Shown piece after piece: positions 12,880 through 28,962 of a DNA stretch of 64,000 nt; within the stretch, counting starts at the first letter, position 1; every line of letters begins with the position of its first letter. The stretch spans positions 1 to 64,000 of the forward strand of contig NZ_JAFEIG010000007.1 in NCBI RefSeq assembly GCF_017495225.1, written 5' to 3'. The notes beneath the pieces were generated by a model. That model saw only the letters and a program-made list of their open reading frames with translations. It was not told the origin of the DNA and ran no database searches. Position numbers and translations under genes: made by a program. This DNA comes from Daejeonella sp. (GTDB lineage Bacteria; Bacteroidota; Bacteroidia; Sphingobacteriales; Sphingobacteriaceae).

Positions 12880-12884
12880 AAAGA

Positions 12885-12910: not shown

Positions 12911-13156
12911 CTCAATAAAAATACACCTTAAAACTCTGATAATTAACAATACAATCATTAAAAATCAACACATTATCTAACCTTCACAAAGGAACGGTTA
13001 AAATTAATGCATAGTATAAAAAATGCAGTTTTGTTACATCTATCTGACTGAATACTGATAAAAATGCTCTGTTAGTAAAAAATTTGTAAGATATCTCCCT
13101 TAAATTTTCAGAATAAGCCTTAAATATTGTATTTTCAAAATAAAAATTTAACAAAC

Positions 13157-14107
13157 ATGACCAATAACCGTCGTAAATTCATCCAACAAGTTTCTGGCTT
13201 AGCCGGAATTGCATTGATTCCTTCTTCATTGTATTCATGCATAGCTAAGAAAAATCCAAATGCAGCAGATTTACAAAATTCATTTTTTGAAATTTCGCTA
13301 GCTGAATGGTCTCTTCATAAAGAATTGTTTAGTAAGAAAATCACCAATTTAGATTTTCCGGTAGTAGCTAAAAAAGAGTTTGGCATCAGTGCGATAGAGT
13401 ACGTGAATGCTTTCTTTAAAGATAAAGCTAAAGACACAAACTACTTGAATGAGCTCTTAATGCGTTGCAATGATAATGGGGTTAAAAATCACCTAATTAT
13501 GTGCGATGGCGAAGGTAATTTAGGAGAATTAGACAATGCAAAACGCATGCAAGCGGTTGAAAACCACTATAAGTGGGTTGAAGCTGCAAAATATTTAGGT
13601 TGTGCTACCATTCGTGTAAATGCTTATGGTGTTGGGACTGCGGCAGAAGTTAAAACTGCGGCAATCGACGGATTAGGTCGCTTGGGAGAGTTTGCATCAA
13701 AAGTTGGCATCAATGTAATTGTTGAAAACCATGGTGGATATAGCTCAGATGGCAGCTGGTTAAGTAGCGTAATGAAAGAAGTTGGTAAAAAGAATGTAGG
13801 AACATTACCTGATTTTAACAATTTCTGTCTTACTCGTCAAGGAAATAAATGTATTGAAGAATACGATAGATATAAAGGTACCCTTGAAATGATGCCTTAT
13901 GCAAAAGCGGTAAGTGCAAAATCACTTGATTTTGATGCGCAAGGAAATTGCATTGAAACCGATTATGTGAAAATGCTCAAAATTGTAAAAGATTCAGGCT
14001 TTAAAGGATATGTAGGTATTGAGTATGAGGGAGATAAGCTTGGAGAATACGAAGGTATCAAGAAAACTAAAGCGCTATTGGAACGTGTAAGAGCTGAGAT
14101 TGGGTAA
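13157..14107 (+). CDS. secreted sugar phosphate isomerase/epimerase-like TIM barrel protein
   Basis: A 316-residue protein of the xylose isomerase-like TIM barrel (AP endonuclease 2) family. The N-terminus carries a twin-arginine-like motif NRRKFIQQVSG followed by a hydrophobic stretch and a Cys (LYSCIAKK), so export by Tat and possible lipidation are likely. Barrel features include GISAIEYVNAFF, VIVENHGGYSSD and VGIEYEGDKLGEYEGI, with Glu/His/Asp metal-ligand candidates on successive strands. Many Bacteroidota carry such Tat-exported epimerase-like proteins near sugar catabolism genes, but none is adjacent here. The frame opens at 13127; ATG 13157 is chosen because it gives the complete Tat signal. 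Its stop lies 3 nt from the first heptad array. Confidence 0.88.
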   Translation: MTNNRRKFIQQVSGLAGIALIPSSLYSCIAKKNPNAADLQNSFFEISLAEWSLHKELFSKKITNLDFPVVAKKEFGISAIEYVNAFFKDKAKDTNYLNELLMRCNDNGVKNHLIMCDGEGNLGELDNAKRMQAVENHYKWVEAAKYLGCATIRVNAYGVGTAAEVKTAAIDGLGRLGEFASKVGINVIVENHGGYSSDGSWLSSVMKEVGKKNVGTLPDFNNFCLTRQGNKCIEEYDRYKGTLEMMPYAKAVSAKSLDFDAQGNCIETDYVKMLKIVKDSGFKGYVGIEYEGDKLGEYEGIKKTKALLERVRAEIG

Positions 14108-14110
14108 GGG

Positions 14111-14280
14111 AGATATGAGATGTGAGATATGAGATATGAGATATGAGATGTGAGATGTGAGATATGAGAGGCACCGTGTCTCATATCTAAATAAAGATGT
14201 GAGATATGAGATGTGAGATGCACCGTGTCTCAAATCTATTGTCTCATATCTCACATCTATTGTCTCATATCTAAATAAAA
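14111..14280. repeat. heptad repeat array 1
   Basis: About nine copies of GAGATRT are followed by a GCACCGT core (14171), an inversion to TCTCATATCT, heptads again, a second GCACCGT core (14220, 49 bp later = 7x7) and inverted heptads. The array fills the gap between two convergent genes: it starts 3 nt after the epimerase stop (14107) and ends 6 nt before the TlpA-like stop (14287, minus strand). The two orientations can pair as long imperfect hairpins. ORFs inside it are by-products of the repeat. Confidence 0.9.
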
Positions 14281-14286
14281 ATAGTT

Positions 14287-15375
14287 TCACTCATGAGTAT
14301 TAATGTATTCAGTTATTAATTGTAAATCATTAACAGTGTTTAATAATTCTTTTCCCTCAGTATCAAGCAAAACTAAAGTTGGAATTGCACTTATGTTATA
14401 TTCAGATTTTATTGCCAGTTTATTCTTTGGTAAGTCCGATAAATTATGCCAATCTATTTTCTCCTTCTCAACAGCAGCTTTCCATTTATCATAATCAGAA
14501 TCAATACTTAAACTCACTAAAGCAACTTTATCCTTAAATTTTAAATTGAATTTTTTTAGCTCTGGAATTTCTGCTATACATGGTGCGCACCAACTAGCCC
14601 AAAAAACTAATAGAACATACTTTTTGTCTTTAATTACGTCATCGTAGTTAAATTTATTACCATTTACATCACTCCATAAAAAACTTTTCTTATAGCCTAT
14701 TTTAGATAAATTGTTTTTTTGATCTAAATATTTCTTTAAAATTTTATATGGTTCTGTAATCTTAATTTTATCGGAAAACAAGCCCATTAATGAAGATAAT
14801 TCTTCGCTAGACTTAGATTCTTTTTGCCAAAAAAGTTGATATAAAACTGCAAAACTTTCATTATTTGATTTTACAATTTTGGGAGTTATTTTTTTAGAAG
14901 ATATCTCAAAGTATGTATCAGATTCCTGAGAACCATCATAATCAACTCTTAAAGTTTTACCCTTAAATTCTACAGGAAAACCCGACGTTTTACTATTAGC
15001 ATTTATTAGAATATTTTCATTTTTAATAAATAATACACTAGAAACACGTGTTTTATCTTTTTTGCGAAAAAAATAAAGTTTTGTGTAAAACTTATTGTTT
15101 TCAAGAAATTCGATTTCTAAATTTTTGGCCTTATCTATACTGTATTTATACTCCAATGAACCATTAATTACTTGAACAGTATCAACTATAAGTGTTGTAT
15201 CTCCGAGCGGAGCGTATCCCCACATTCTAATAACAGCTTTATCACAATTGGAAACATATTTTTTTAACTCAATCGTTATTTTTCCTTCATCTTTATTTTT
15301 TTCGCAACTAATAATAGTGAAGCAAGCTATTAATAACAAAAACTGGAATCTGTAATTTTTTATTTTCATGTCCAT
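14287..15375 (-). CDS. TlpA-like thiol-disulfide oxidoreductase lipoprotein
   Basis: A 362-residue lipoprotein (signal peptide with ACFTIISC, lipid Cys C24). An N-terminal DUF4369-like beta domain (about residues 30-190) precedes a C-terminal thioredoxin-fold domain of the TlpA/AhpC-TSA family with active site WCAPC (C263 and C266) and the cis-proline region ISAIPTLVLLDTEG. Such proteins reduce or shuffle disulfides in the periplasm. Codon use is strikingly AT-rich and Lys/Asn-rich compared with neighbouring housekeeping genes, and the gene is bracketed by repeat arrays, which hints at recent acquisition. Starts at 15375 and 15369 are both possible. No heme-maturation partner genes are adjacent. 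Confidence 0.9.
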   Translation of the reverse strand: MDMKIKNYRFQFLLLIACFTIISCEKNKDEGKITIELKKYVSNCDKAVIRMWGYAPLGDTTLIVDTVQVINGSLEYKYSIDKAKNLEIEFLENNKFYTKLYFFRKKDKTRVSSVLFIKNENILINANSKTSGFPVEFKGKTLRVDYDGSQESDTYFEISSKKITPKIVKSNNESFAVLYQLFWQKESKSSEELSSLMGLFSDKIKITEPYKILKKYLDQKNNLSKIGYKKSFLWSDVNGNKFNYDDVIKDKKYVLLVFWASWCAPCIAEIPELKKFNLKFKDKVALVSLSIDSDYDKWKAAVEKEKIDWHNLSDLPKNKLAIKSEYNISAIPTLVLLDTEGKELLNTVNDLQLITEYINTHE

Positions 15376-15529
15376 TACAATTTATAATATATAAAATATT
15401 TTTTCTTAGTGAAATACCTATAAATTCATGTACTTTCCTCTCTAGTCTGTCCCTTTGCGTTTTGTGTAGTTTAATGATTTTCTCCAACTAGTATATATGT
15501 TTCACAAAATCATCCCAATCCACCTCAAC

Positions 15530-15780
15530 TCGGATCTATAAGTCCCACAAATGCCTCAAAAATATTTATTGAAATTACACTAATTAACCGAAATAATAAA
15601 AATTTAATATAAAGATTAAATTTTATCATCATGAATAAAAAATAAGCAATATTGAGTCCTAAGCAATTCAAAATCAATACATTCAATTAGCGGCTAGGCT
15701 TTTGCTTCACAAAGTCATCCTTTAGAAAGCTCTAAAAATAGTTGCCTTCTAATAAATTTATGGTTGTTTTTTGTCTTAAA
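15530..15780. repeat. duplicated block, copy A
   Basis: This block is highly similar to 16356-16591 (copy B), beginning TCGGATCTATAAGTCC and ending TTTTTTGTCTTAAA, with small indels (offset 826 at the left end, 811 at the right). It runs straight into heptad array 2. No intact gene is present. On the minus strand short coding-like tails are visible (GLIDPS then stop; ELSKG then stop), so it may be a gene remnant. The flanking 15376-15529 holds nothing recognisable apart from TTCACAAAATCATCC (15501-15515), which resembles a segment within the block near 15706. Confidence 0.85.
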
Positions 15781-15782
15781 TA

Positions 15783-16020
15783 TGAGGTGTGAGACGTGAG
15801 ATATGAGATGTGAGATGTGAGATATGAGATGTGAGATGCACCGTGTCTCATATCTCATATCTATTGTCTCAAATCTAAATACAGATGTGAGATGTGAGAG
15901 GCACCGTATCTCATATCTCAAATCTAGTGTCTCAAATCTAAATACAGATGTGAGATGTGAGAGGCACCGTGTCTCATATCTCACATCTATTATCTCAAAT
16001 CTAAATAAAGATATGAGAGT
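15783..16020. repeat. heptad repeat array 2
   Basis: Forward heptads (GAGATGT/GAGATAT) are followed by three tandem higher-order units. GCACCGT cores lie at 15838, 15901 and 15964, a period of exactly 63 bp (9x7). Each unit runs from forward heptads through GAGAGGCACCGT to inverted heptads (TCTCATATCTC) and CTAAATA. The array ends 8 nt before the stop codon of the small minus-strand membrane ORF (16029). Confidence 0.92.
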
Positions 16021-16028
16021 CACTAGTG

Positions 16029-16289
16029 TCACATATCAATCAATGTAAATGCAAGAATAAAAAGTATTAAATTGATTATTAATCTAATAAATACATTTCT
16101 CAAAAATTTTCTTTCATCAGATAAATAAATCTTTCTGATAAGATAAATATTAAAAAAAATATTTAAGATAATTAGAATATTTAAGATAATTATCCAAAAT
16201 TCACTTAAATTAAATCTACGAAATAGAGAATAATTAATATATAATATTATTGTTAAGAAACTTGAAACGGAATTAAGTTTTGAAATCAT
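16029..16289 (-). CDS. small membrane protein, unknown
   Basis: An 86-residue hydrophobic ORF with two to three predicted membrane segments (about residues 10-25, 31-55 and 66-84) and basic loops. It has no recognised family. The sequence is very AT-rich, dominated by Ile, Leu, Asn and Phe. It lies between heptad array 2 and duplicated block copy B, with its stop just beyond the array edge. It could be a real small membrane protein, an orphan partner gene left from a larger locus, or chance coding in AT-rich DNA. Confidence 0.4.
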   Translation of the reverse strand: MISKLNSVSSFLTIILYINYSLFRRFNLSEFWIIILNILIILNIFFNIYLIRKIYLSDERKFLRNVFIRLIINLILFILAFTLIDM

Positions 16290-16355
16290 AATTAAAAACT
16301 ATTCATAAAATCAGCAAAATCCATTAGCATTCATGCAACGCCCATTCACCCCAAT

Positions 16356-16591
16356 TCGGATCTATAAGTCCCTCAAAAAACATATATTGAAATTACAATA
16401 ATTAATAAAAAAATTAAATATAAAGATTAAATTTTATCGTTATGGATAAAAAATAAGCAATATTAAGTCCTAACCCATTCAAAATCAATAGATTCAAATA
16501 GCGGCTAGGCTTTTGCTTCACAAAGTCATCCTTTAGAAAGCTCTAAAAACAGTTGCCTTCTAATAAATTTATGATTGTTTTTTGTCTTAAA
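16356..16591. repeat. duplicated block, copy B
   Basis: Second copy of the block at 15530-15780, again running directly into a heptad array. On the minus strand a short frame at 16324-16383 reads MFFEGLIDPNWGEW and then a few residues to a stop; it matches the shorter GLIDPS tail in copy A and looks like the end of a lost gene. A second tail (FIRRQLFLELSKG, stop) is kept in both copies, and its two base differences are both synonymous. The region 16290-16355 is otherwise featureless. Confidence 0.85.
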
Positions 16592-16912
16592 TGTGGGATG
16601 CGAGATATGAGATATGAGATGTGAGATGCACCGTGTCTCATATCTAAATAAAGATGTGAGATATGAGATGTGAGATGTGAGAGGCACCGTGTCTCATATC
16701 TATTGTCTCAAATCTAAATACAGATGTGAGATGTGAGAGGCACCGTATCTCATATCTCAAATCTATTGTCTCAAATCTAAATAAAGATATGAGATGTGAG
16801 AGGCACCGTATCTCATATCTCAAATCTATTATCTCAAATCTAAATAAAGATGTGAGAAGCACCGTGTCTCATATCTATTGTCTCATATCTCACATCTATT
16901 ATCTATCATCTA
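16592..16912. repeat. heptad repeat array 3, overlapping the nadE stop
   Basis: The longest array. GCACCGT cores at 16628, 16684, 16740, 16803 and 16859 are spaced 56, 56, 63 and 56 bp, all multiples of seven. Units have the same build as array 2. The right end (CTATTATCTATCATCTATAC) merges into the last codons of nadE, whose TGA lies at 16906-16908 on the minus strand. Confidence 0.92.
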
Positions 16913-18543
16913 TACTTCGCCACAATCGGCATTCTCCTACCCGTTCCAAATGCTTTTGGGGAAACTCGAAGTATTGGGGGTGCTTGTTTACGCTTAAATT
17001 CGGCCATGTTTACCATCCTAAGGATTCTCTTAACCATTGCTTCATCAAAACCCATTGAAATTAGTTCGGAGGAACTCTTTTTAAGCTCAATATATTGGAA
17101 AAGTATGGCATCTAATACCTCATAATCTGGCAATGAATCCGAATCTTTTTGTCCCGGACGTAATTCAGCCGATGGGGGTTTCACGATGCTATTTTGAGGA
17201 ATAATTTCACCATTTCTATTAATGAAATGAGCTAATTTATAAACTTGCGTTTTATATACATCTCCCAAAACAGAAATTGCTCCAGCCATATCTCCATACA
17301 AAGTCCCATAGCCTACAGCACACTCACTTTTATTGGATGTATTGAGTAAAATATAACCAAATTTATTCGACATAGCCATTACAACAATGCCTCTACTTCT
17401 TGCTTGAATATTCTCTTCTGCCACATTAAATGGAAGATCTTCAAATGCTGGCTTCATCATGCTATCGAATGCTGCTGTAGCCTCCTTAATTGGAATGATT
17501 TGATGTTTACAGCCAAGGTTGGCAACAAGATCTAATGCATCTTGTATAGAATGATCGCTAGAGTACTCTGAAGGCATTAAAACAGCCATAACGTTCTCCG
17601 ATCCCAAAGCCTCAGCGGCAAGCGCACAAACGAGCGCAGAATCAATTCCGCCGGAAAGTCCGAGTACCGCCTTCGAAAATCCAGATTTTTGGAAATAGTC
17701 TTTAATACCTAAGACTAAAGCATCATGAATTTGTTCAATATCATTATGAGGATTATGAATGATAGCGTTTAGTCCGAAAATCTTTCCTTCTTCAATAGAA
17801 TAAAACCTGAGACTTTCCTGAAAATAAGGCAGTTCATCGAGGAGTGCACCTTCTTGATCAAATACTAAAGAACCTCCATCAAAAATAATTTCTGTTTGAG
17901 CGCCAATCTGATTTACATAGAATAATGGCAATTTATATTTCCGGCAGTTATCCCCCAATACTTGTACCCTTTCTTCATCATGATTATAAGCGAAAGGAGA
18001 GGCTGCAATATTAATCATGAAATCCGGATTTTCCTTTGCAAGCTCCTCCATTGGCGAAATCACATACATCGGATTATCGTTGATATTCCAAAGATCCTCA
18101 CAAATAGTAAGCGCAATTTTATGGCCTTTAAACTCGATGCAGCTAAAATTTACAGCTGGCTCAAAGTAGCGATACTCATCAAAAACATCATAATTTGGGA
18201 GTAGAGCCTTATTCACAATGGACTTAACCTTCCCATTTTCAATAAAATAAGCCGAATTATACAAATCCTTGCCCTTAATTTCAGGATTCTTTGTTGGGAG
18301 TCCGATGATGCATGCAATACCCTCACAAGCCTCAGCAATCTTCCTAGCTGAATCTTCACATTGATCGATAAATTCCGAGAATTCCAGAAAATCGCAAGGC
18401 GAGTAAGCACAAACAGAAAGCTCGGCAAATACCACTAAATCAGCACCTTGAGCCTTTGCTGAATGGAGTGTATCAATTATTTTGGAGGTGTTAAAATCGA
18501 AATCTCCAATAATATAATTTAGTTGAGCAAGGGCTATTTTCAT
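16906..18543 (-). CDS. nadE: glutamine-dependent NAD+ synthetase
   Basis: Last step of NAD synthesis: ATP-dependent amidation of deamido-NAD using glutamine. The 545-residue protein has an N-terminal nitrilase-type glutaminase domain with triad E41, K112 and C148 (ALTICEDLW), and a C-terminal synthetase domain with the PP-loop SGGIDS at residues 297-302 and the STSNKSE-like segment LNTSNKSECAVGYGT. The order (glutaminase then synthetase) and the short length match the bacterial two-domain form. It is divergent from gldB, with a 96-bp shared upstream region containing a 16-bp palindrome. Its 3' end is fused to heptad array 3, so the last residues (AKYR) may have been shaped by the repeat. Confidence 0.97.
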   Translation of the reverse strand: MKIALAQLNYIIGDFDFNTSKIIDTLHSAKAQGADLVVFAELSVCAYSPCDFLEFSEFIDQCEDSARKIAEACEGIACIIGLPTKNPEIKGKDLYNSAYFIENGKVKSIVNKALLPNYDVFDEYRYFEPAVNFSCIEFKGHKIALTICEDLWNINDNPMYVISPMEELAKENPDFMINIAASPFAYNHDEERVQVLGDNCRKYKLPLFYVNQIGAQTEIIFDGGSLVFDQEGALLDELPYFQESLRFYSIEEGKIFGLNAIIHNPHNDIEQIHDALVLGIKDYFQKSGFSKAVLGLSGGIDSALVCALAAEALGSENVMAVLMPSEYSSDHSIQDALDLVANLGCKHQIIPIKEATAAFDSMMKPAFEDLPFNVAEENIQARSRGIVVMAMSNKFGYILLNTSNKSECAVGYGTLYGDMAGAISVLGDVYKTQVYKLAHFINRNGEIIPQNSIVKPPSAELRPGQKDSDSLPDYEVLDAILFQYIELKKSSSELISMGFDEAMVKRILRMVNMAEFKRKQAPPILRVSPKAFGTGRRMPIVAKYR

Positions 18544-18591
18544 GGTCTAATCATTAAAGCTAAATTAATTGAGCGCTATTCATAAGCTAAA

Positions 18592-18607
18592 CACAGAATA
18601 TTCTGTG
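18592..18607. promoter_or_regulatory. 16-bp perfect palindrome between nadE and gldB
   Basis: CACAGAATATTCTGTG lies in the 96-bp intergenic region of the divergent genes, 48 bp from the nadE start and 32 bp from the gldB start. The position fits an operator acting on one or both promoters. No regulator is linked. Confidence 0.45.
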
Positions 18608-18639
18608 CATTTTCATAATTTAGCAATTTATCTTCATTT

Positions 18640-19665
18640 ATGAGACGAGCGCAAATTTACCTGTTTTTTTTAATATGCCTGATGATCCTGTCTTGTAATA
18701 ATAAAAAGACTCCCGATATCAGCAAAATCAATCTAAATACTAAAATTGAACGATTTGATAAGGATTTTGGAAGCTTAAATGCAAATAATATCTCCGAAAA
18801 AGCGCCAGATTTAAGGAAAAAATATACCTGGTTTTATGATGATTATATGGAAAAAATAATCGTTGCCGGTGTAGCAAGTGATACAGCATATTATTCTAAT
18901 TTGAGATTTATTCTTCAAAATCCTGATTATTTAGAATTAAAAAACACTGTAGATAAGACTTTTCCTGATCTCAAAAAGCAAGAATTAGAGATTAATCAAG
19001 CATTTAAATACATTAAATACTATTATCCGAAGCAGAAATTACCACGTTTAATAAGTTTTTTATCGGGTTTTGCGGTACAAACGCCAATTGGCAACGACTA
19101 TATTGGAATAGGCTTAGATATGTTCTTAGGCAAAAATGGAGAACGCTTTTATCCTGCCCTTAGAGAAAGTATTCCTGCTTATATTGCTAGACGATTCAAT
19201 CCAGAAAATATAAGTCCCAGGGTAATAGAAACCCTCATTCGGGAGGACATATTCCCAGAAAAAGACAGCGACAGAACCTTACTAAGTAAAATGATTTACA
19301 ATGGGAAGGTTCTTTATTTGATGGATGCAGTGATGCCCGAAACAAGTGATACGCTCAAGATTGGATATACCCAAAAGCAACTCGATTGGTGTGAAGAATA
19401 TGAATCTGGGATTTGGGCTTATTTTATTGAAAATAACCTTTTATACGAATCAGATTACTTAAAAATACAGAAATATATAGCTGAGGCGCCATTTACTCCG
19501 GGTATTGGCGAAAAATCTGACTCTGCACCTAAATTAGGAATTTGGACTGGCTGGCAAATTGTAAAGAAGTATATGGATAAAAATCCAGAGTTAAGTTTAC
19601 AACAGTTAATGCAAGAGGGTGATGCCCAAAAAATTCTAAACGAATCGAAGTATAAGCCGAGATAG
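18640..19665 (+). CDS. gldB: gliding motility lipoprotein GldB
   Basis: A 341-residue lipoprotein with signal peptide and lipobox (LMILSCN, C19). The body matches GldB: INLNTKIERFDKDFGSL near the start, then LPRLISFLSGF, NDYIGIGLDMFLG, RESIPAYIARRF and PGIGEKSDSAPKLGIWTGWQIVKKYM. In Flavobacterium, GldB is needed for gliding; in non-gliding Bacteroidota it is retained with other T9SS-associated genes. The nadE-gldB adjacency is a known arrangement. No gldC follows here; a terminator and an opposite-strand small gene come next. Confidence 0.92.
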   Translation: MRRAQIYLFFLICLMILSCNNKKTPDISKINLNTKIERFDKDFGSLNANNISEKAPDLRKKYTWFYDDYMEKIIVAGVASDTAYYSNLRFILQNPDYLELKNTVDKTFPDLKKQELEINQAFKYIKYYYPKQKLPRLISFLSGFAVQTPIGNDYIGIGLDMFLGKNGERFYPALRESIPAYIARRFNPENISPRVIETLIREDIFPEKDSDRTLLSKMIYNGKVLYLMDAVMPETSDTLKIGYTQKQLDWCEEYESGIWAYFIENNLLYESDYLKIQKYIAEAPFTPGIGEKSDSAPKLGIWTGWQIVKKYMDKNPELSLQQLMQEGDAQKILNESKYKPR

Positions 19666-19715
19666 GCAGTGTACAATATTTATTGAAAATATTATTTGGC
19701 AGTGCTATAAAACAG

Positions 19716-19752
19716 AAAAGGCTCATAACCAATAGGATACGAGCCTTTTTTT
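19716..19752. terminator. terminator downstream of gldB
   Basis: AAAAGGCTC (19716-19724) pairs with GAGCCTTTT (19741-19749), loop 16 nt, followed by further T residues. It can act in both directions for gldB and the convergent small gene. Confidence 0.75.
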
Positions 19753-19765
19753 ATATAATATAAGA

Positions 19766-19975
19766 CTATTTTAAAATTCTAAGAACAGCTCTTAAGCAAA
19801 TTACTGAACCAATTACCCAAAGCACATTAGAAACGATGCTTATCATCGGCCATTCGCCTGTAAAGCGTAGAAAAATACCTACTAAACCAATAGCAATACC
19901 TAAAACAATAGTTTTGTAGTGTGAAGGATTATTAGCTTCTGCAGTTGAGTTATTTTTATTTAAAGAATCTTCCAT
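19766..19975 (-). CDS. small two-helix membrane protein
   Basis: A 69-residue protein with a polar, Asn-rich N-terminus (residues 1-20) and two membrane segments: about 23-38 (IVLGIAIGLVGIFLRF) and 45-66 (ISIVSNVLWVIGSVICLRAV). The FTGEWPM loop lies between them. It resembles small conserved membrane proteins of Bacteroidota of unknown function. ATG at 19975 is well placed. It is on the same strand as the atp operon and 51 bp downstream of atpG, so it could be read from it, although it is not a known ATP synthase component. Confidence 0.7.
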   Translation of the reverse strand: MEDSLNKNNSTAEANNPSHYKTIVLGIAIGLVGIFLRFTGEWPMISIVSNVLWVIGSVICLRAVLRILK

Positions 19976-20026
19976 TTCGGTTTATTTAGAAATACAAATT
20001 TACAAAATATTGTAATTAAAATTTAA

Positions 20027-20908
20027 TTATCCGTTAGATAATGCTGCTGCACCACTTACAATTTCAGTTAATTCGGTTGTAATTGCTGCTTGTCTAGCTT
20101 GGTTATACGATAATTTAAGCGATTTTAATAAGTCGCCAGCATTTTCAGTAGCCTTATCCATTGCAGTCATACGCGCACCATGTTCAGAAGCATGAGAATC
20201 TAAAACAGCTTTAAAAACTTGAGTTTTTACAGATTTAGGTATTAGTTGTTCTACAATTTCCTCTTGTGATGGTTCTAAAACATAATCAGTTTGAGAAGAA
20301 GTCAAATTGGTCATATCCGACTTAGGTACAGGCAATAATTGTTCTGTAGTAAGAACTTGCACTGCAGCATTTTTAAACTGGTTGTAAACCAACTCCACAC
20401 GATCATATTCGCCTTTCTGAAATCCTGCCATGACAGACTCAGTAATTTTTGAGGTATTTTCGAAAGTTAAATCAGAGAAAAGTTCGTTATTATTACCGAT
20501 AACATTGTATTTACGTTTCTCATAAAAATCTTGAACTTTCTTACCGATGGCAACGATATGTACGTTTCCTTGGCGAAATTGTTCAGAATATTTATCATTA
20601 ATCAGGTTATTGGTAGTTTTAATCACATTCATATTGAATGCACCTGCCAAACCACGATTTGAAGAAATAGCAATAATCAAAACCTTATTCGGCTCACGTT
20701 CTTGCGTAAAAGGAGAGTTTGATCCATCCATGGTAGCAGATAGGTTGGACAAGATATCCCTCATTTTATTCGCATAAGGACGCAACTGAACAATTGCACT
20801 TGTTGCTCTTTTCAACTTAGCTGCTGAAACCATTTTCATGGCTTTAGTAATCTGCTGGGTTGAGGTTACAGATGCTATACGATTTCTTACTTCTTTTAAA
20901 TTTGCCAT
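20027..20908 (-). CDS. atpG: ATP synthase F1 subunit gamma
   Basis: Central rotor stalk of F1. At 293 residues it has the normal length. The N-terminus MANLKEVRNRIASVTSTQQITKAMKMV and the C-terminus (TENAGDLLKSLKLSYNQARQAAITTELTEIVSGA) are the paired coiled-coil helices conserved in all gamma subunits. The frame is open a further 69 nt upstream to 20977 through the heptad array, giving Ser/His-rich sequence; this is repeat-derived, and ATG 20908 is the real start. It is the last gene of the operon. atpD and atpC are not here, as is usual in Bacteroidota. Confidence 0.97.
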   Translation of the reverse strand: MANLKEVRNRIASVTSTQQITKAMKMVSAAKLKRATSAIVQLRPYANKMRDILSNLSATMDGSNSPFTQEREPNKVLIIAISSNRGLAGAFNMNVIKTTNNLINDKYSEQFRQGNVHIVAIGKKVQDFYEKRKYNVIGNNNELFSDLTFENTSKITESVMAGFQKGEYDRVELVYNQFKNAAVQVLTTEQLLPVPKSDMTNLTSSQTDYVLEPSQEEIVEQLIPKSVKTQVFKAVLDSHASEHGARMTAMDKATENAGDLLKSLKLSYNQARQAAITTELTEIVSGAAALSNG

Positions 20909-20913
20909 CTTAT

Positions 20914-21004
20914 TGAGATGTGAGATGTGAGATATGAGATTTGAGACCTGAGATGTGAGATGTGAGACGAATCTCAAATCTCACATCTATGATCTCATAT
21001 CTCA
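20914..21004. repeat. heptad repeat array 4 inside the atp operon
   Basis: Fills nearly all of the 97-bp gap between atpA and atpG. Forward heptads span 20915-20968 and inverted heptads span 20971-21004; there is no GCACCGT core, the turn being GAGACGAATCTC. The right end is 1 nt from the atpA stop. On the mRNA it can fold into a long imperfect hairpin just upstream of the atpG ribosome-binding region. Confidence 0.9.
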
Positions 21005-21005
21005 A

Positions 21006-22580
21006 TTAATATTTACCGCTAAGCTCCTTAGCCACTGTTTCAAGAACAGTTGTAATGCTATCATCCAATTTACCAGCTTTTAAAGCTTGTAAAACTTCTG
21101 GGTGACGTTGCTCAATCTGCTGGATAAACTCAAATTCAAAATCTTTAACCTTATTTACAGGAACATTTCTCATTAAGTTTTTGGTACCAACATAAAGAAT
21201 AGCTACTTGCTTTTCAACTGTTTCGGGTGCAAACTGTGCTTGTTTTAACAATTCAACGTTACGAGCACCTTTATCAAGTACTAATTTTGTTGCTGCATCA
21301 AGATCAGAACCGAATTTAGAGAAGGCCTCTAATTCACGATATTGAGCTTGGTCAAGCTTAAGAGTACCGGCAACTTTCTTCATCGACTTGATTTGCGCGT
21401 TACCACCCACACGAGATACCGAGATACCTACATTAATTGCGGGACGAACACCAGCGTTAAACAAGTTCGACTCAAGGAATATCTGTCCGTCGGTGATTGA
21501 AATCACGTTAGTTGGGATATATGCAGAAACGTCACCAGCTTGAGTTTCAATAATTGGCAAAGCCGTTAATGAACCACCACCTTTTACGATATGCTTAATT
21601 GATTCAGGAAGATCGTTCATTGACTGAGCGATAGAATCGTTTGAATTAATTTTTGCAGCACGCTCTAACAAACGGCTGTGAAGGTAGAATACGTCACCTG
21701 GATAAGCCTCACGACCTGGAGGACGACGTAAAAGTAGAGATACCTCACGATAAGAAACAGCTTGCTTAGAAAGATCATCATAAACAATTAATGCTGGTCT
21801 ACCAGTATCACGGAAGAATTCGCCAATTGCAGCACCCGCAAATGGAGCGTAGAACTGCATTGGTGCAGGATCAGCTGCAGAAGCTGCAACGATTACTGTG
21901 TAAGGTAAAGCACCATTTTCTTCTAATACCTTTAATATTTGAGCTACAGTAGAATTTTTCTGTCCGATAGCTACATAAATACAGAATACAGGATTTCCTG
22001 CTTCGTAAAATTCTTTTTGATTGATGATGGTATCAATACAAACTGCAGTTTTTCCAGTCTGACGATCACCAATTACAAGCTCACGTTGTCCGCGACCAAT
22101 TGGAATCATCGCATCAATTGCTTTGATACCAGTTTGTAATGGTTCAGTTACTGGCTGACGATAAATTACACCTGGTGCTTTACGCTCCAAAGGCATTTCA
22201 TAAGTATCACCTGTAATTGGTCCCTTACCATCAATTGGCTGACCTAAAGTATTAACAACGCGTCCAAGCATACCTTCACCAACCTTGATAGAAGCAATTT
22301 TATTGGTACGTTTTACTGTAGCGCCTTCTTTGATTTCATCAAAAGCACCAAGTAACACGACACCCACATTGTCTTCTTCCAGGTTCAAAACGATACCTTG
22401 CAAACCATTTTCAAACTCAACCAGCTCACCTGATTGAACTTTTGTTAAACCGTATACGCGAGCAATACCATCACCCACTTGTAACACAGTACCAACCTCT
22501 TCGAGCTCGGCCTCCGATTTAAAGCCTGACAGTTGTTGTCTTAAAATCGCCGAAACTTCATCTGGTCTTACCTCTACCAT
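21006..22580 (-). CDS. atpA: ATP synthase F1 subunit alpha
   Basis: Regulatory nucleotide-binding subunit of the F1 hexamer, 524 residues. The Walker A motif GDRQTGKT is at residues 171-178, and the region with [12 protein letters not shown] and the arginine-finger area [15 protein letters not shown] are intact. [17 protein letters not shown] is the normal N-terminus. It is separated from atpH by 87 bp that include GC-rich small hairpins, and from atpG by heptad array 4. Confidence 0.98.
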
Positions 22581-22667
22581 AGTAGTATTTTTTGAGTTTT
22601 ATATTGTAAATCTTACGCCCCCACCCCTATTGGGAGCAATTTTTGCCCTATTATGGGATTGGGGTAA

Positions 22668-23207
22668 TTAATTTTGTTGAAATTCCTTTTTAAGTTTGTT
22701 GAGTTTACCCGACAAGCTTGTATCAAATTGTCTATCGCCAACTTTAAGAATAAAGCCACCAATTAATGCAGGATCAACATGAGAAGTAAGAATTACTTCA
22801 CCTTTAGTTGCCTCTTTTACTACTGCTTCAATCTGACTAATATTTTCTTTACTTAAAGCTGAAGAGGAGGTAACTGTTGCCTTCACTACATTTTTCAGCA
22901 CATTATACTGATTAACATATTCTTTAGCAGAGGCTAATAAAACATCAGCGCGTCCCTTCCTGATAGCAATTTTGAAAAATTCAAGAATCATTTTATTCAG
23001 CTTATCGCCAAATATAGCATCCAAAATATTCGCTTTTTTATCAAGGCTAATAATTGGATTTTTTAGAATCGCTTGAAGTTCTGCATTGGCTTTACAGGTA
23101 TCGATAAATAACTCAATATCCTTCTTAACCGGCTCAACAATATTTTGCTCAGCCGCCAGATCAATTAAAGCTTTTGCGTAACGCGATGCAACTTGTATTT
23201 CTGACAT
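22668..23207 (-). CDS. atpH: ATP synthase F1 subunit delta
   Basis: Peripheral stalk subunit (OSCP family), 179 residues. The N-terminal helical domain opens with the family pattern ASRYAKALIDLAAEQN, and the C-terminus has the beta-strand signature VDPALIGGFILKVGDRQFDTSLSGKLNKLKKEF. It links the b subunits to the top of F1. It lies between atpF (49 bp upstream) and atpA in the standard order. Its length and conserved ends show that it is intact. Confidence 0.96.
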   Translation of the reverse strand: MSEIQVASRYAKALIDLAAEQNIVEPVKKDIELFIDTCKANAELQAILKNPIISLDKKANILDAIFGDKLNKMILEFFKIAIRKGRADVLLASAKEYVNQYNVLKNVVKATVTSSSALSKENISQIEAVVKEATKGEVILTSHVDPALIGGFILKVGDRQFDTSLSGKLNKLKKEFQQN

Positions 23208-23256
23208 AATTCGATTTGTTAATTTATTGTCTTATCAAATTAGATTAACAAAATTC

Positions 23257-23769
23257 TTAATTAAGTTTTACTTCTTTCAGAAGGTCGTTTACAAGAGCCT
23301 CTTGTTTTCCCTGATCTTCGAATTGCTTACGCAAAACTTTTTCAGCAATTTCAATAGACAAGCTAGAAACTTGATTTTTTATTTCTGCCATTGCGGCAAG
23401 CTTCTGATTAGTAATCTCAATTTTTGCTTTTTCAATAAGCTTAGAACCTTCGGTTTTAGCTTGTTCTTTTGCATCATTAACGATCTGATCTTTAATCTCT
23501 TTAGCCTCTTTTAAAATCTCATCACGCTTTAAACGTGCTTCCTTTAAAAGATCTTCGTTCTCACTGATCAATTTAGCCATTTCAGCTTTCGCCATTTCAG
23601 CCTTTGCCAAAGAATCTTCGATAAAACGCTCACGCTCATCAAGAGCCTTAACTATTGGCTTCCAGGCAAACTTGCTTAGAAGGAAAAACAGTATTAAAAA
23701 AGTAACTGTCGACCAGATGAATAAACCCGGATCCGGAGTAACCAATGGATTTAATGCCAGTAATATCAT
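23257..23769 (-). CDS. atpF: ATP synthase Fo subunit b
   Basis: Peripheral stalk subunit, 170 residues. One N-terminal membrane helix (about residues 14-33, LFIWSTVTFLILFFLLSKF) is followed by a long charged coiled coil with the conserved KALDERERFIEDSLAKAEMAK region and an acidic/basic heptad pattern to about residue 150. It follows atpE after a hairpin that may act as a partial terminator. Confidence 0.97.
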   Translation of the reverse strand: MILLALNPLVTPDPGLFIWSTVTFLILFFLLSKFAWKPIVKALDERERFIEDSLAKAEMAKAEMAKLISENEDLLKEARLKRDEILKEAKEIKDQIVNDAKEQAKTEGSKLIEKAKIEITNQKLAAMAEIKNQVSSLSIEIAEKVLRKQFEDQGKQEALVNDLLKEVKLN

Positions 23770-23802
23770 TTGTTATATTGTTTAATAATCAATCAAAATA
23801 AT

Positions 23803-23839
23803 AAAATAAGGCCGGTGCCAATCGCACAGGCCTTATTTT
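23803..23839 (-). terminator. hairpin between atpE and atpF (attenuator candidate)
   Basis: Perfect 11-bp stem AAAATAAGGCC (23803-23813) and GGCCTTATTTT (23829-23839) with a 15-nt loop, 4 nt after the atpE stop on the minus strand and ending in a T-rich arm. It has the look of an intrinsic terminator inside the operon, directly after the high-copy c subunit. Confidence 0.7.
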
Positions 23840-23843
23840 GTTT

Positions 23844-24056
23844 TTACCTTGTTCCTAAGAACGCAACAACCACAGCAAATAATGCTACCGCTTCAACGAA
23901 TGCTGCCGCGATTAACATAGCTGTTTGAATTTTAGATGCTGCTTCAGGTTGGCGAGCCATACCTTCCATAGCTTTTCCACCAATGTTTCCGATACCAATG
24001 CCTGCTCCAAGAGCAGCTAATCCTGCACCAATACCTGCGATACTTCCAACGATCAT
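23844..24056 (-). CDS. atpE: ATP synthase Fo subunit c
   Basis: A 70-residue two-helix proteolipid that forms the rotor ring. The glycine-rich first helix is GIGAGLAALGAGIGIGNIGG, the polar loop is ARQPEA (residues 35-40), and the proton-binding carboxylate is E55 in AAFVEAVALF. The residue after E55 is Ala, and the Na+ ligand Gln of helix 1 is absent, so proton rather than sodium coupling is expected. A hairpin lies directly downstream. Confidence 0.98.
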   Translation of the reverse strand: MIVGSIAGIGAGLAALGAGIGIGNIGGKAMEGMARQPEAASKIQTAMLIAAAFVEAVALFAVVVAFLGTR

Positions 24057-24098
24057 AGTCTGATTTTTAAATATATATTAAACAAAAAATAATTCAAA

Positions 24099-25235
24099 TT
24101 AATGTTCAGCATGCTCTTCTACCGCCATCCCAATAAATAGGGCTGATAAAATGGTGAAGATGAATGCTTGAATAAAACCTACTAACAATTCAATTACACT
24201 AATAAATAGCACGAATGGAATTGCGACACCCGCAACAAATACTGATTTCAAAATAAAAATCAGAGATATTAAACTTAAGATCAAAATGTGACCGGCAGTG
24301 ATGTTTGCAAACAAACGAATCATTAATGCTACAGGCTTCACAATTAGTCCTACAATTTCAACTGGAATCATTAGTGGATATAACCACCAAGGAACGTGAG
24401 GTGTAAATACGTGACCCCAATAATTTTTATTCCCATTAACCGTAGTTAAAACAAAAGTACAAAGTGCAAGCATCATTGTAACTGCAATATTTCCGGTTAC
24501 GTTTGCTCCACCTGGGAAGAAAGGAACTAATCCCAAAAGGTTATTTAACCAAACGAAGAAAAATATCGTCAGTAAATAAGGCATGAAACCTCTGTATTTA
24601 TGTCCCAATTGTGGTTTTGCAATATCGTCACGGACAAATAAAATAATTGGTTCCAACAAAGATTGCATTCCCTTAGGGGCTTTACCCTCTCTCTTTTTGT
24701 ATGAATTAGCAACGCCAATAAAAACAATTAAAAGAATTGTAACAGATATTAATAACGAAACAACATTCTTAGTGATAGATATGTCGAGTGGCTTTTTATT
24801 CAAAAGCTCTCCATCTGCATTATAAGTAATGTAAGTTCCATTAGCACTTTTAACATCAGATGGGTAATAATACTTGCCATGATAATTTACAAGTTTTGTA
24901 CCCTCTAGATCTAAGATTTCAGTCCCATGATCATTATGACCAAATTTATTTGAAAGAAAAGTCTTAAGTCCATTATCGGTCCAAAGAATTACTGGAAGTG
25001 GAATATAAACATGGCCGAAAAAATGCCATTCATGTGAATCTGCAATATGGTGAAGAATCACTTCAGAAATATCTTCGTCTGCTTCCTCAACATGCGCTTC
25101 AGTAGCTGAAACCTTAGAAGAATCTGCTGCTGCGTGCTCTTCTGAAAAGGCAGAAAAACTCAATAGCGAAAAGAAAACTGCACAAAATGCAAGGCTGAAG
25201 AATTTTTTTGTATTGAAAATATGGCTCAAATCCAT
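24099..25235 (-). CDS. atpB: ATP synthase Fo subunit a
   Basis: Stator channel subunit, 378 residues, long because of a Bacteroidota-type N-terminal extension: a signal-like hydrophobic segment (residues 11-31) followed by an acidic periplasmic domain with a His-rich part (HHIADSHEWHFFGHVYIPLP). The essential arginine is R307 in LMIRLFANITAGHILI, and the C-terminal helices include ELLVGFIQAFIFTILSALFIG. It follows the atpI-like gene by 14 bp and precedes atpE by 42 bp. Confidence 0.97.
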   Translation of the reverse strand: MDLSHIFNTKKFFSLAFCAVFFSLLSFSAFSEEHAAADSSKVSATEAHVEEADEDISEVILHHIADSHEWHFFGHVYIPLPVILWTDNGLKTFLSNKFGHNDHGTEILDLEGTKLVNYHGKYYYPSDVKSANGTYITYNADGELLNKKPLDISITKNVVSLLISVTILLIVFIGVANSYKKREGKAPKGMQSLLEPIILFVRDDIAKPQLGHKYRGFMPYLLTIFFFVWLNNLLGLVPFFPGGANVTGNIAVTMMLALCTFVLTTVNGNKNYWGHVFTPHVPWWLYPLMIPVEIVGLIVKPVALMIRLFANITAGHILILSLISLIFILKSVFVAGVAIPFVLFISVIELLVGFIQAFIFTILSALFIGMAVEEHAEH

Positions 25236-25249
25236 TTATTATAAGGAAT

Positions 25250-25639
25250 TTACTTAATTTTTTGGTTGCGCAAGTTACACAACAAACAATATATTTCAAA
25301 CACTGTATGAAAGAAATACAGATAAAAAAAATTGATCACGAAATAAATTGGATCAAAGGTGTTATTTTGAATATAAACAAAGGCTATAATCATGCTAAAA
25401 AGCATCTTTACTGTGATGCTAACGAGTAGTGCTTGTGCAGAAGCTTGGTCACTAATTCTCATTCTCCAAGAAGCAATTATATAAATATTGAAAGTAATGA
25501 ATGAGAATATCCAAAACATTGGCCAAAATTTAGGGATTAAAACGCCTCTTTCCGGAAAGAAATAATCGGCAAAAAAGGGAGCAGCCGCTAAAAACAAGTT
25601 GAACAGAATAAAATAAATTATAAAGCGATTAAAACTCAT
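25250..25639 (-). CDS. AtpI-like membrane protein of the atp operon
   Basis: A 129-residue membrane protein with four predicted helices (about residues 5-22, 33-52, 66-88 and 95-115) and sparse conserved polar residues. It occupies the position of subunit I/AtpI in the operon, upstream of atpB, and is probably an assembly factor or Mg2+-related accessory protein, as proposed for AtpI. The frame extends upstream to 25693, but ATG 25639 overlaps the atpZ stop in an ATGA arrangement (stop 25636-25638, start 25637-25639), which points to translational coupling and fixes the start. The sequence match to AtpI is weak, so the name rests mainly on context. Confidence 0.8.
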   Translation of the reverse strand: MSFNRFIIYFILFNLFLAAAPFFADYFFPERGVLIPKFWPMFWIFSFITFNIYIIASWRMRISDQASAQALLVSITVKMLFSMIIAFVYIQNNTFDPIYFVINFFYLYFFHTVFEIYCLLCNLRNQKIK

Positions 25640-25872
25640 GCCTTCAATTGTCTGACAGTTTGATAAATGGATAAAAATACGCCCAAAACACAAGCTATAG
25701 CCGTAACATATTGAACTTTATGATCGTAATATTGATCAATTTTGTATCCTATATATGCTGAACCTCCAATAATAGCCATCATTTGGAAAGCTACACCCGT
25801 ATATTTTGCAAAATTTGCATAAGACTGACCTTTTGAATTCTCAGAATTTGGCTTATTTCTTTCCTCTTCCAT
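25636..25872 (-). CDS. AtpZ/AtpI-family small membrane protein
   Basis: A 78-residue protein with a hydrophilic N-terminus (residues 1-18) and two membrane helices. It carries the AtpZ (putative F1Fo-ATPase subunit) pattern YANFAKYTGVAFQMMAIIGGSAYIGYKIDQYY, followed by a second helix. It is the first gene of the atp operon, with a -7-like box 19 nt upstream of the ATG. AtpZ and AtpI proteins are proposed to help Fo assembly or Mg2+/Ca2+ transport. It overlaps the next gene by 4 nt. Confidence 0.88.
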   Translation of the reverse strand: MEEERNKPNSENSKGQSYANFAKYTGVAFQMMAIIGGSAYIGYKIDQYYDHKVQYVTAIACVLGVFLSIYQTVRQLKA

Positions 25873-25890
25873 TATTGAAAATTAACATCG

Positions 25891-25898
25891 CAAAATTA
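25891..25898 (-). promoter_or_regulatory. -7 box of the atp operon
   Basis: TAATTTTG on the minus strand matches TAnnTTTG. Transcription would begin near 25885, giving a short leader before the AtpZ-like ATG at 25872. Confidence 0.5.
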
Positions 25899-26066
25899 TT
25901 AAAATAAAGCCTTGCATTGCGGAAAAAATCAAAAACAGGAAAAATAAATGCCTAATTTTAATAAATCATGCACCTTCATATCCAAATTAGCATTTGGTAT
26001 GAGCCGATCTAAAAATTTCTTAGATAAAGAGTTTATATTTATGACTACAATTCCGTTCTGATAAAA

Positions 26067-26074
26067 TATCTTTG
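26067..26074 (+). promoter_or_regulatory. -7 box of the porW-like gene
   Basis: TATCTTTG is an exact TAnnTTTG match, placing a start site near 26081, about 30 nt before the TTG start codon. No strong TTG -33 element is seen. The sequence from 25899 to 26066 holds nothing else recognisable. Confidence 0.5.
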
Positions 26075-26109
26075 CATAGTTTCTGTTATACTAATTAAAG
26101 AAAATTAAT

Positions 26110-28956
26110 TTGAGATCAAAAAATCAAGTTATACGACAATTTTTATTTTTAAGCTTAGCCCTTGGACTGAGCTTTTCTTCCTGCAATTCCCAGAAAGAGA
26201 CTGTTGCGAGCAGGAATATGCAAAATTTGACTGCTCATTTCAACATTCTTTATAATGCTAATGAAATTGTAAATGAAAGTGAGAGAAATATTCAATTGGC
26301 TCATTCCGACGATTATGACCGAATTATCTCGGTCTTCAAAGAAGCTAATGAAAGCAATTCTCAGGGCGAGTTGGGCAAATTAGATCAAGCAATATTAAAG
26401 GCAAATACCATTGCGAATGAGAAATCTCAGAGCAAATATGTAGATGAAGCCTATTTCTTAATCGGAAAAGCAAATCATTTAAAGTCTAATTTTTTTAATG
26501 CCGTTGAATATTTTGATTATGTGTGCCTAAATTATCCGAAGGAAAAAGAAGTTAAGCAAGCCTCTTTAGCTTGGAAAACGAGGTCATTAATAGCATCTGA
26601 CAGGCTAGAAGAAGCTTATAACTCCATTGATTCTGCATTAAAATACGTCAATACAGAGAAAAAATCTGTCGCAGATATATTCGCTATCCGTGCACAACTA
26701 CATATCTATGCAAAGGAAGATCTTCAGGCGATTAATATGCTTGAAAAAGCGATTGCTTCTAAAACAAGTAAGCAGAATAAAATACGCTGGACTTACCTTT
26801 TAGCGCAGCTTCAGCAAATAAATGGGCAGGCAGAGGATGCATATAAAAATTATGCTAGAGTTTTAAAGAGCAATGCTTCCTTCGAAATGGCTTTTAATGC
26901 AAAATTAAGCTCAATAAATCTTAAAAATAAGATTAGCCTAGATCCTCAAAATAGAACAAAACAAATTGCTGCCTTATTAAAAGATAGCAAAAACATTGAT
27001 TTTCATGATCAAATTTATTTTCAAATCGCGAACAGCTACGCAGAGGAAAATAACATTGAAAAAGCGATTGAAAACTACAATAATGCGATCTCAAAAAGCA
27101 CAAAAAATGTCATTCAAAAAGGATTAGCCTATTTAAAATTGGCTGAAATTTATTTTAACGATAGTGACTATATCAAATCGAAAGCTTACTATGATAGCAC
27201 CCTTGTAGCACTTCCAAGTATTTATCCTGACTATGCACAGATAAAAAAGAAAGCCGATAATATTGAGTTACTTGCTGATCGCTTATCTATTATCGCGAAG
27301 GAAGACACCCTTCAAATGCTTGCAAAATTGCCAGAAAATGAGCGAAATGAAAAAATAAACGCGCTAGCTGAGCAAGAATTAATTAAAGCCCAAGCTAAAA
27401 TTGATAATGACCAATCAGGAGTTACAACTGCTGGATCAACGAGTAGCAGCGGTGGAAATACAAAATTCTATTTTAATAATAGCATTGCCATAAATCAAGG
27501 GATTGTAGATTTTAAAAAGACTTGGGGGACAAGAAAGCTAGAAGATAATTGGAGACGCAGCCAAAAATCAGCTGCCGATATTTCTAATACTTTAGCAAAT
27601 AACCAAGTTCCAATTAATGACCCTTTCAAAGAAATATCTGCTCCAAGCGCATCAGTAAATATTGATTCATTGAAAAAAGCATTAAGTGATTCAATTCCAT
27701 TGAGCGAGGAAATGAAAAAAGTTTCTAATGAGAAAATCGGATCTGCTATGTATGATATTGGCAATTATTACCGAGAAGTAACTAATGACACTTTAGAAGC
27801 AATCAATACGTATGAAAAACTTCTGCAAAGATTTCCGGAAGATCCGAACAAATTGGCTGTTTACTATAATTTATATAGACTTTACAAAGGCGCAAATATG
27901 CCGCTTTCCGATAAATACAAGAACATTCTTTTAGATCAATTTCCGGAATCACCATTTGCAAAAATCATTCTTGATCCTGACTACAATCAGAAAAATGACG
28001 AGAAAGAAATGGCCTTCAATCAATTTTACAATGATGTGTATGAATTATACACCGATAAAAAATATTCGGACGTGTTAAAATCAATTGAAGAGAATAGTAA
28101 TAAGTTGGGAGATGAGAAAATTCCAGCCCAATTAGCTTATTTAAATTCACTTGCATTAGGACATTTGGAAAAGCTCGACAAGCTTGAAGATTCATTTAAA
28201 AATATTGTTGATTCAAACCCGGAAGATCAACTGATTGTACCATTAATTAAATTACAATTGGCCTTTATCGACTCCAATAGAACTGAAATTGCTAATCGTC
28301 CATTTGCATTATTAGACAATGAAACCATCATAAATTCAGTGATTGAAGAACCTACTAATCAAGAGCCTGTGATTAAAAAGCCTGTGATTGTAGAAGCAGT
28401 TGTAGAAAAGGCTGTAGTAGTAGAAAAGCCTATAGTAGTGGCAAAGCCAGCGCAATCAGAAGAGAAAAAAGCTGTAGAACCCGTAAAAATAGTAGTCGAA
28501 GAACCTAAAAATACTAAACCTGAAGAATTAGTCGTTCAAGAAGCTAAGAAGGAAGAGCCAAAGATTAAAATTGAGCCAATTGATACTTTCTTTGAGCTGA
28601 ATGAGCCTGGCGATTATTATTTCATAGTAAACGTTTCTGACCCTACTCTGAATTTAAGTTCGTCCCGTTTCGGAATAGGGCAATTTAACCGCGTCAATTT
28701 CTCGGGCAATTCAATTAAACATCAAGTTAAATCAGTAGCCGATCAAAATCAGTTAATATTTGTCGGGCCTCTAAATAGCAAAGATGCTGCTCAAGCATAT
28801 TTTGATCAGATAAATCCTCTTATGAAAGAGATTATGAAAGTTCCTGCTACAAAATACAGTACATTCCTAATCAGCGATAAAAACCTTGAAAAAATTACTG
28901 ATTTAGGAACCCTTGAGCGTTATGTAAACTTTTACAAAAAGAATTTTAATCAATAA
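26110..28956 (+). CDS. porW: PorW/SprE-like T9SS TPR lipoprotein
   Basis: A 948-residue lipoprotein (signal peptide with SFSSC, C25), starting at TTG 26110. Right after the Cys comes SRNMQNLTAHFNILYNANEIVNESERN, which matches the start of mature PorW/SprE-type proteins. Tetratricopeptide-like helices span about residues 100-400 and 550-720. A low-complexity Val/Glu/Lys/Pro stretch (about 750-820) links to a C-terminal globular domain with YYFIVNVSDPTLNLSSSRFGIGQFN and FVGPLNSKDAAQAYFDQI, typical of the family. SprE/PorW is needed for T9SS secretion and gliding and connects the PorKLMN ring to other parts. It lies near gldKLMN, with the PBP gene 6 nt downstream. Family assignment is fairly sure; the symbol is by analogy. 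Confidence 0.8.
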   Translation: MRSKNQVIRQFLFLSLALGLSFSSCNSQKETVASRNMQNLTAHFNILYNANEIVNESERNIQLAHSDDYDRIISVFKEANESNSQGELGKLDQAILKANTIANEKSQSKYVDEAYFLIGKANHLKSNFFNAVEYFDYVCLNYPKEKEVKQASLAWKTRSLIASDRLEEAYNSIDSALKYVNTEKKSVADIFAIRAQLHIYAKEDLQAINMLEKAIASKTSKQNKIRWTYLLAQLQQINGQAEDAYKNYARVLKSNASFEMAFNAKLSSINLKNKISLDPQNRTKQIAALLKDSKNIDFHDQIYFQIANSYAEENNIEKAIENYNNAISKSTKNVIQKGLAYLKLAEIYFNDSDYIKSKAYYDSTLVALPSIYPDYAQIKKKADNIELLADRLSIIAKEDTLQMLAKLPENERNEKINALAEQELIKAQAKIDNDQSGVTTAGSTSSSGGNTKFYFNNSIAINQGIVDFKKTWGTRKLEDNWRRSQKSAADISNTLANNQVPINDPFKEISAPSASVNIDSLKKALSDSIPLSEEMKKVSNEKIGSAMYDIGNYYREVTNDTLEAINTYEKLLQRFPEDPNKLAVYYNLYRLYKGANMPLSDKYKNILLDQFPESPFAKIILDPDYNQKNDEKEMAFNQFYNDVYELYTDKKYSDVLKSIEENSNKLGDEKIPAQLAYLNSLALGHLEKLDKLEDSFKNIVDSNPEDQLIVPLIKLQLAFIDSNRTEIANRPFALLDNETIINSVIEEPTNQEPVIKKPVIVEAVVEKAVVVEKPIVVAKPAQSEEKKAVEPVKIVVEEPKNTKPEELVVQEAKKEEPKIKIEPIDTFFELNEPGDYYFIVNVSDPTLNLSSSRFGIGQFNRVNFSGNSIKHQVKSVADQNQLIFVGPLNSKDAAQAYFDQINPLMKEIMKVPATKYSTFLISDKNLEKITDLGTLERYVNFYKKNFNQ

Positions 28957-28962
28957 AAAAAC

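What the first reader, a model, noticed from the sequence alone, without database searches (positions are those of the whole stretch)
20909..21005. Heptad array inside the atp operon between atpA and atpG
The 97-bp gap between two essential, stoichiometrically linked F1 subunits is almost entirely a self-complementary array. On the mRNA it would fold just ahead of the atpG start and could affect gamma synthesis, mRNA processing or stability. A repeat tolerated at this place suggests it is either neutral to transcription or useful.
Basis: partly seen in the sequence, partly recalled or inferred. Interest (0 to 1): 0.6.

Follow-up and report, generated by a model that had tools for sequence, protein, structure and literature searches.

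The report
Shape-conserved heptad hairpin in atp operon
Between two ATP-synthase genes this bacterium carries a hairpin built from 7-base repeats, and most of its relatives have such a hairpin at the same spot made of different 7-base words, which suggests that evolution keeps the folded shape, possibly to set how much of each subunit is made.

Summary
The whole 97-nt gap 20909-21005 is an inverted array of TGAGATG-type heptads that folds into a 29-bp hairpin in the atpA-atpG mRNA. Comparison adds much. In Sphingobacteriaceae about 80% of atpA-atpG gaps (101 of 127 loci) hold such an array, but the word changes between lineages (at least 52 changes on an atpA tree, against at least 14 changes of presence). 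Of 61 gene pairs conserved in at least 4 of 9 sampled genomes, only atpA-atpG has arrays in most (7 of 9); atpF-atpH follows (3 of 9), the other 59 have at most one. In a genome nearly free of arrays the atpD-atpC and atpA-atpG gaps hold the best ones. The hairpins follow subunits needed in more copies than the next gene (alpha3-gamma1, beta3-epsilon1, b2-delta1) and are rare before a step up (delta1-alpha3). The atpD-atpC case was predicted before it was looked at. Best explanation: an intercistronic RNA hairpin that lowers the downstream relative to the upstream subunit, as between malE and malF, built and rewritten by heptad slippage and arm-to-arm copying. Positional and structural conservation are shown; the RNA mechanism is inferred.

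The parts
20909..21005 (-). atpA-atpG intercistronic heptad hairpin, the element itself; fills the whole gap
20972..21004 (-). 5' arm in mRNA sense: G-containing, C-poor heptads (TGAGATA TGAGATC ATAGATG TGAGATT TGAGA)
20914..20967 (-). 3' arm in mRNA sense: about 7.7 C-containing, G-poor heptads (CATCTCA type), longer than the 5' arm, so several pairing registers are possible
21006..22580 (-). atpA, F1 alpha subunit (3 copies per enzyme), upstream gene
   Evidence: stoichiometry from general knowledge of F1Fo
20027..20908 (-). atpG, F1 gamma subunit (1 copy), downstream gene; start at 20908 is conserved in relatives
22581..22667 (-). atpH-atpA gap (delta1 to alpha3): no heptad array (0 of 9 genomes)
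23208..23256 (-). atpF-atpH gap (b2 to delta1): no array in this genome, but period-7 or period-8 gaps in 22 of 35 family loci
23770..23843 (-). atpE-atpF gap (c-ring to b2): a different, U-tailed hairpin with invariant CGRTTGG apex; 15 of 16 stem pairs show two-sided changes in relatives

Best explanation
The array is an intercistronic RNA hairpin that separates a high-copy from a low-copy subunit gene in the ATP synthase operon. Downstream of the atpA stop codon the gap folds into a long hairpin a few nucleotides before the atpG start. Inferred steps: the hairpin shields the 3' end of the upstream atpA message from 3'-5' decay after cleavage downstream, and/or limits ribosome entry at atpG, so that more alpha than gamma is made. 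The same device sits between atpD and atpC. The sequence is free as long as the arms pair: the heptad array grows and shrinks by whole 7-nt units and arms are rewritten from each other, so each lineage builds the same shape from its own word. Shown: position, periodicity, arm pairing, word turnover, restriction to certain gaps. Inferred: that selection acts on the RNA, and the effect on subunit ratio.
For: (1) Occupancy at the orthologous gap: 28 of 35 family loci, 101 of 127 loci with some genomes held twice; also in other families of the class, e.g. Hymenobacter and Arcicella. (2) Specificity: 7 of 9 genomes at atpA-atpG, 3 of 9 at atpF-atpH, at most 1 at 59 other conserved pairs; the array site next to nadE in this genome is occupied in only about 4-6 of 16 relatives. 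(3) Persistence where arrays are rare: in G015 the atpA-atpG gap is the only clear period-7 array in 400 kb, and the two best of 5 genome-wide matches are the atpD-atpC and atpA-atpG gaps. (4) Prediction met: the atpD-atpC gap in this genome is a 117-nt heptad hairpin, and matches fall in that gap in five relatives, G001, G008, G009, G015, G016. (5) Arms change together: own arm complementarity 15.7, cross-species swaps 8.1, shuffled 6.7. (6) Word class changes at least 52 times on an atpA tree, presence at least 14. (7) No U-tract follows the hairpin, so an intrinsic terminator is unlikely. (8) Precedent: protective intergenic hairpin between malE and malF and wide use of differential decay to set stoichiometry in E. 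coli (PMC5927463).
Against: No expression data. Mismatches in the stems are not clearly biased to G-U over A-C in mRNA sense (119 to 99, p = 0.2, nonredundant set), so selection on RNA rather than DNA pairing is not shown. Some lineages do without: Parapedobacter (3-5 nt gap) and a group of Pedobacter (26-30 nt). In this genome atpF-atpH lacks an array. A weak array lies between groES and groEL in G015 and one between sdhA and sdhB in G018, which do not fit a step-down rule. The step-down pattern rests on few gaps.
Confidence: 0.5

Rival explanations
1. Neutral or selfish heptad arrays that spread through intergenic DNA and are merely tolerated here.
For: Arrays are intergenic throughout the sampled genomes (12 in 400 kb here, about 60 in 400 kb of G018) and at most sites turn over between relatives.
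Against: atpA-atpG is occupied in 7 of 9 genomes while 59 other conserved pairs have at most one, and it persists in genomes that have nearly no other arrays.
Confidence: 0.15
2. Translational insulator: the hairpin blocks reinitiation or run-on of ribosomes from atpA into atpG and sets independent, lower initiation, without a role in mRNA stability.
For: The hairpin ends a median of 9 nt before the atpG start, inside a ribosome's upstream footprint; lineages without it mostly have short gaps that would allow coupling.
Against: Cannot be separated from the decay model without data. In this genome the favoured register leaves 26 nt free before the start.
Confidence: 0.2
3. Mutational hotspot: something about this gap makes heptad arrays arise repeatedly, without selection on their product.
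For: Whole-unit length changes (L098 and L099 gaps differ by one heptad) and an arm rewritten to perfect complementarity (L091 and L092) are seen, so mutation does shape the form.
Against: The neighbouring atpH-atpA gap of the same operon has 0 of 9, while the unlinked atpD-atpC gap has arrays.
Confidence: 0.1
4. Tandem binding sites for a protein that reads heptads in DNA or RNA, as suggested for TAACTGA repeats; the hairpin is secondary.
For: Strict period 7 (or 8), and 5' arm words mostly share an AG every 7 nt (70 of 89 distinct words).
Against: The word differs between close relatives at the same site and between sites in one genome, which is hard to square with a sequence-specific reader.
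Confidence: 0.05

Closest known systems
Intercistronic protective hairpin between malE and malF of E. coli (PMC5927463)
   Same: Stable hairpin in the gap after the gene needed in more copies, with no U-tract
   Different: Not built of heptads; here the sequence is not conserved and the site is in the ATP synthase operons; decay effect untested
STRR sequences of cyanobacteria (short tandemly repeated heptamers; from general knowledge)
   Same: Intergenic tandem heptamers in many copies
   Different: STRRs are direct repeats of set words; here arrays are inverted and the word varies by site and lineage
TAACTGA repeats of Beggiatoaceae, Cyanobacteria and a few Bacteroidetes (PMC4679880)
   Same: Period-7 intergenic repeats, often just before a start codon
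   Different: One word, mostly direct orientation, no conserved gene pair reported in the parts read; the word differs from those here
REP elements (GTAG- or CGTC-tagged palindromes; PMC3733652)
   Same: Extragenic palindromes in many copies, some intercistronic
   Different: No fixed sequence or tag here; arms are tandem heptads

Membership tests
Intrinsic (Rho-independent) terminator | Hairpin followed directly by a U-tract | tested here: not met
   Sequence after the hairpin in mRNA sense is further heptads, then AATAAG and ATG
REP element | Fixed palindromic sequence with GTAG or CGTC tag | tested here: not met
   Words differ between lineages and no constant tag is seen across gaps
REP element | Associated RAYT transposase | not tested
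   Not searched
STRR or TAACTGA-type heptamer repeats | Period of 7 nt, intergenic | tested here: met
   Only period 7 is enriched among periods 4-12, intergenic
STRR or TAACTGA-type heptamer repeats | One set word repeated in direct orientation | tested here: not met
   Inverted arms; many words, at least 52 word changes on the tree
malE-malF type protective intercistronic hairpin | Hairpin in the gap after the gene needed in more copies, no U-tract | tested here: met
   atpA (3) before atpG (1); also atpD before atpC
malE-malF type protective intercistronic hairpin | Upstream mRNA outlives downstream mRNA, with a 3' end at the hairpin | not testable with these tools
   Needs RNA-seq, term-seq and half-lives
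Any Rfam family | Match above gathering score | tested here: not met
   Window 12000-30000: only chance-level hits far below gathering score

The most novel reading that the evidence does not exclude
A new kind of cis-acting RNA element that is conserved only as shape and period: an inverted array of 7-nt (or 8-nt) units that sits at set gaps of the ATP synthase operons and sets subunit ratios, while its sequence is continually rewritten by slippage and copying between arms.
Probability: 0.4. Interest if true: 0.85.

Novelty: new variant of a known kind. Interest (0 to 1): 0.72.

Why it matters
If right, it is a regulatory RNA that alignment-based searches do not see, because only pairing and period are kept. 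It would offer an answer to how these Bacteroidota make unequal amounts of subunits from one operon, and it would show tandem-repeat mutation serving as the raw material that keeps a functional hairpin alive.

Tried and rejected
A genome-specific heptad was considered and dropped: one genome holds several words, and the sites of one genome differ. A G-U against A-C asymmetry test for RNA-level selection looked positive on the redundant set (89 to 59) but not after removing related gaps (119 to 99, p = 0.2) and is treated as inconclusive. Stop codons in every frame as the reason for period 7 were considered; words such as CAAGTAT hold none. Literature searches found no description of these arrays in Sphingobacteriaceae, within an open-access library only.

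Full report
What is there. The 97 nt between atpA (stop at 21006) and atpG (ATG at 20908), both on the minus strand, consist of tandem heptads of the TGAGATG type followed by their reverse complements. In mRNA sense the gap folds into a 29-bp hairpin at -44.1 kcal/mol (z = -7.2). The 3' arm is longer than the 5' arm, so other registers lie within about 3 kcal/mol. The genome belongs to the Sphingobacteriaceae; the nearest named records are a Pedobacter schmidteae MAG and a Daejeonella MAG. Related heptad arrays occur at many other intergenic places of this genome.

The site in relatives. The atpA-atpG gap was cut out of relatives. Nearly all gaps of 60-150 nt in the family are self-complementary arrays of period 7, a few of period 8, but the word differs: GAGATNT, GTATTGA, GTATTTA, AAGTATC, GTTGCGA, AAAGTTG, TGTGCAGA and others. 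In 35 family loci, 28 have a period-7 or period-8 gap at atpA-atpG, 22 at atpF-atpH, 6 at atpH-atpA and 1 after atpG. Seventy-one more gaps from the family agree. Over 127 loci, some genomes being held twice, the labels are 94 period 7, 7 period 8, 7 other, 19 short. On an atpA tree of 116 rows, presence changes at least 14 times and word class at least 52 times. Swapping arms between species halves the complementarity, nearly to the shuffled level (15.7, 8.1, 6.7).

Is this site special? Nine genomes were sampled in stretches of 175-400 kb. Period 7 is the only enriched period among 4-12 and the arrays are intergenic. Their number varies widely: about 60 in 400 kb of G018, 12 here, 1 in G015, 0 in G013 and G024. 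Among 61 co-directional gene pairs conserved in at least 4 of the 9 genomes, atpA-atpG has arrays in 7 of 9 (the other two have a 22-nt gap), atpF-atpH in 3 of 9, and every other pair in at most one. In G015 the only clear array of the 400-kb sample is this one. The neighbouring nadE site, also with an array in this genome, is occupied in only about 4-6 of 16 relatives. The genomes were chosen for contig size after arrays had been seen at the locus in most relatives, so the 7 of 9 is not an independent sample, but the contrast with other pairs in the same genomes does not depend on that choice. Genes were called as longest ATG open reading frames, so some gap limits are approximate.

A prediction. 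The occupied gaps follow a subunit needed in more copies than the next (alpha3 before gamma1, b2 before delta1; stoichiometry from general knowledge), and the gap before a step up (delta1 to alpha3) is mostly free. This predicted an array between atpD (beta3) and atpC (epsilon1), which lie elsewhere in the genome. The gap, G000:C7:53124-53240, is a 117-nt heptad hairpin. With coordinates of atpD and atpC, matches to this array fall inside the atpD-atpC gap of G001, G008, G009, G015 and G016; in G015 the two best of five genome-wide matches are the atpD-atpC and atpA-atpG gaps. The atpB-atpE gap (step up) is AT-rich and conserved in sequence without an evident hairpin, and the atpE-atpF gap (step down) has a different hairpin with strong covariation. 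Weak counter-examples are arrays between groES and groEL in G015 and between sdhA and sdhB in G018.

How it probably works. Two mutational modes are visible: loss or gain of exactly one heptad (L098 and L099) and rewriting of one arm to perfect complementarity with the other (L091 and L092). These would keep a hairpin alive while its sequence drifts. The likely function is the one shown for the malE-malF hairpin: a stable structure after the high-copy gene that protects its mRNA, and/or keeps ribosomes from entering the next gene, the hairpin ending a median of 9 nt before the atpG start. Which of the two applies, and whether selection acts on RNA at all, is not shown; the G-U against A-C test was inconclusive. 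In 83 of 89 hairpins the 5' arm is G-rich relative to C and the 3' arm the reverse, an unexplained polarity.

What is known. No Rfam family matches above gathering score. Heptamer repeats are known from cyanobacteria and Beggiatoaceae, with a few cases in Bacteroidetes (PMC4679880), there as repeats of one word. No paper found in the searched library describes these arrays in Sphingobacteriaceae or at the ATP synthase genes.

Noticed in passing
window 23770-23843 (minus strand), loci L335-L361: The atpE-atpF gap holds a U-tailed hairpin whose apex CG[A/G]TTGG is invariant in 15 sequences from several families while 15 of 16 stem pairs show changes on both sides; no Rfam match above gathering score. 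It looks like an undescribed conserved RNA after the c-subunit gene.
   Followed up: partly
window 14110-14276, 15780-16018, 16591-16913: Composite heptad arrays, the latter two with a recurring GAGGCACCGT core between the arms, repeated with a 56-63-nt period near nadE.
   Followed up: partly
L335-L352, gap between atpB and atpE (window about 24057-24098): A strongly conserved AT-rich stretch (GAATTTATTTTTTGTTTAATATATATTTAAAAATCA) just before atpE; perhaps a promoter or translation enhancer for the c subunit.
   Followed up: no
G018 sample, loci L139-L158: One relative has about 60 period-7 arrays in 400 kb with many different words, some over 150 nt long, nearly all intergenic; the cause of this expansion is unknown.
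   Followed up: no
89 atpA-atpG hairpins: Fixed polarity: the 5' arm has more G than C and the 3' arm more C than G in 83 of 89, and 5' arm words mostly carry AG every 7 nt.
   Followed up: partly
window 1-367: Tandem repeat with a 166-bp unit, 2.2 copies, holding CCCTCTAGAGGG and CCCCGCTAGCGGGG palindromes.
   Followed up: no
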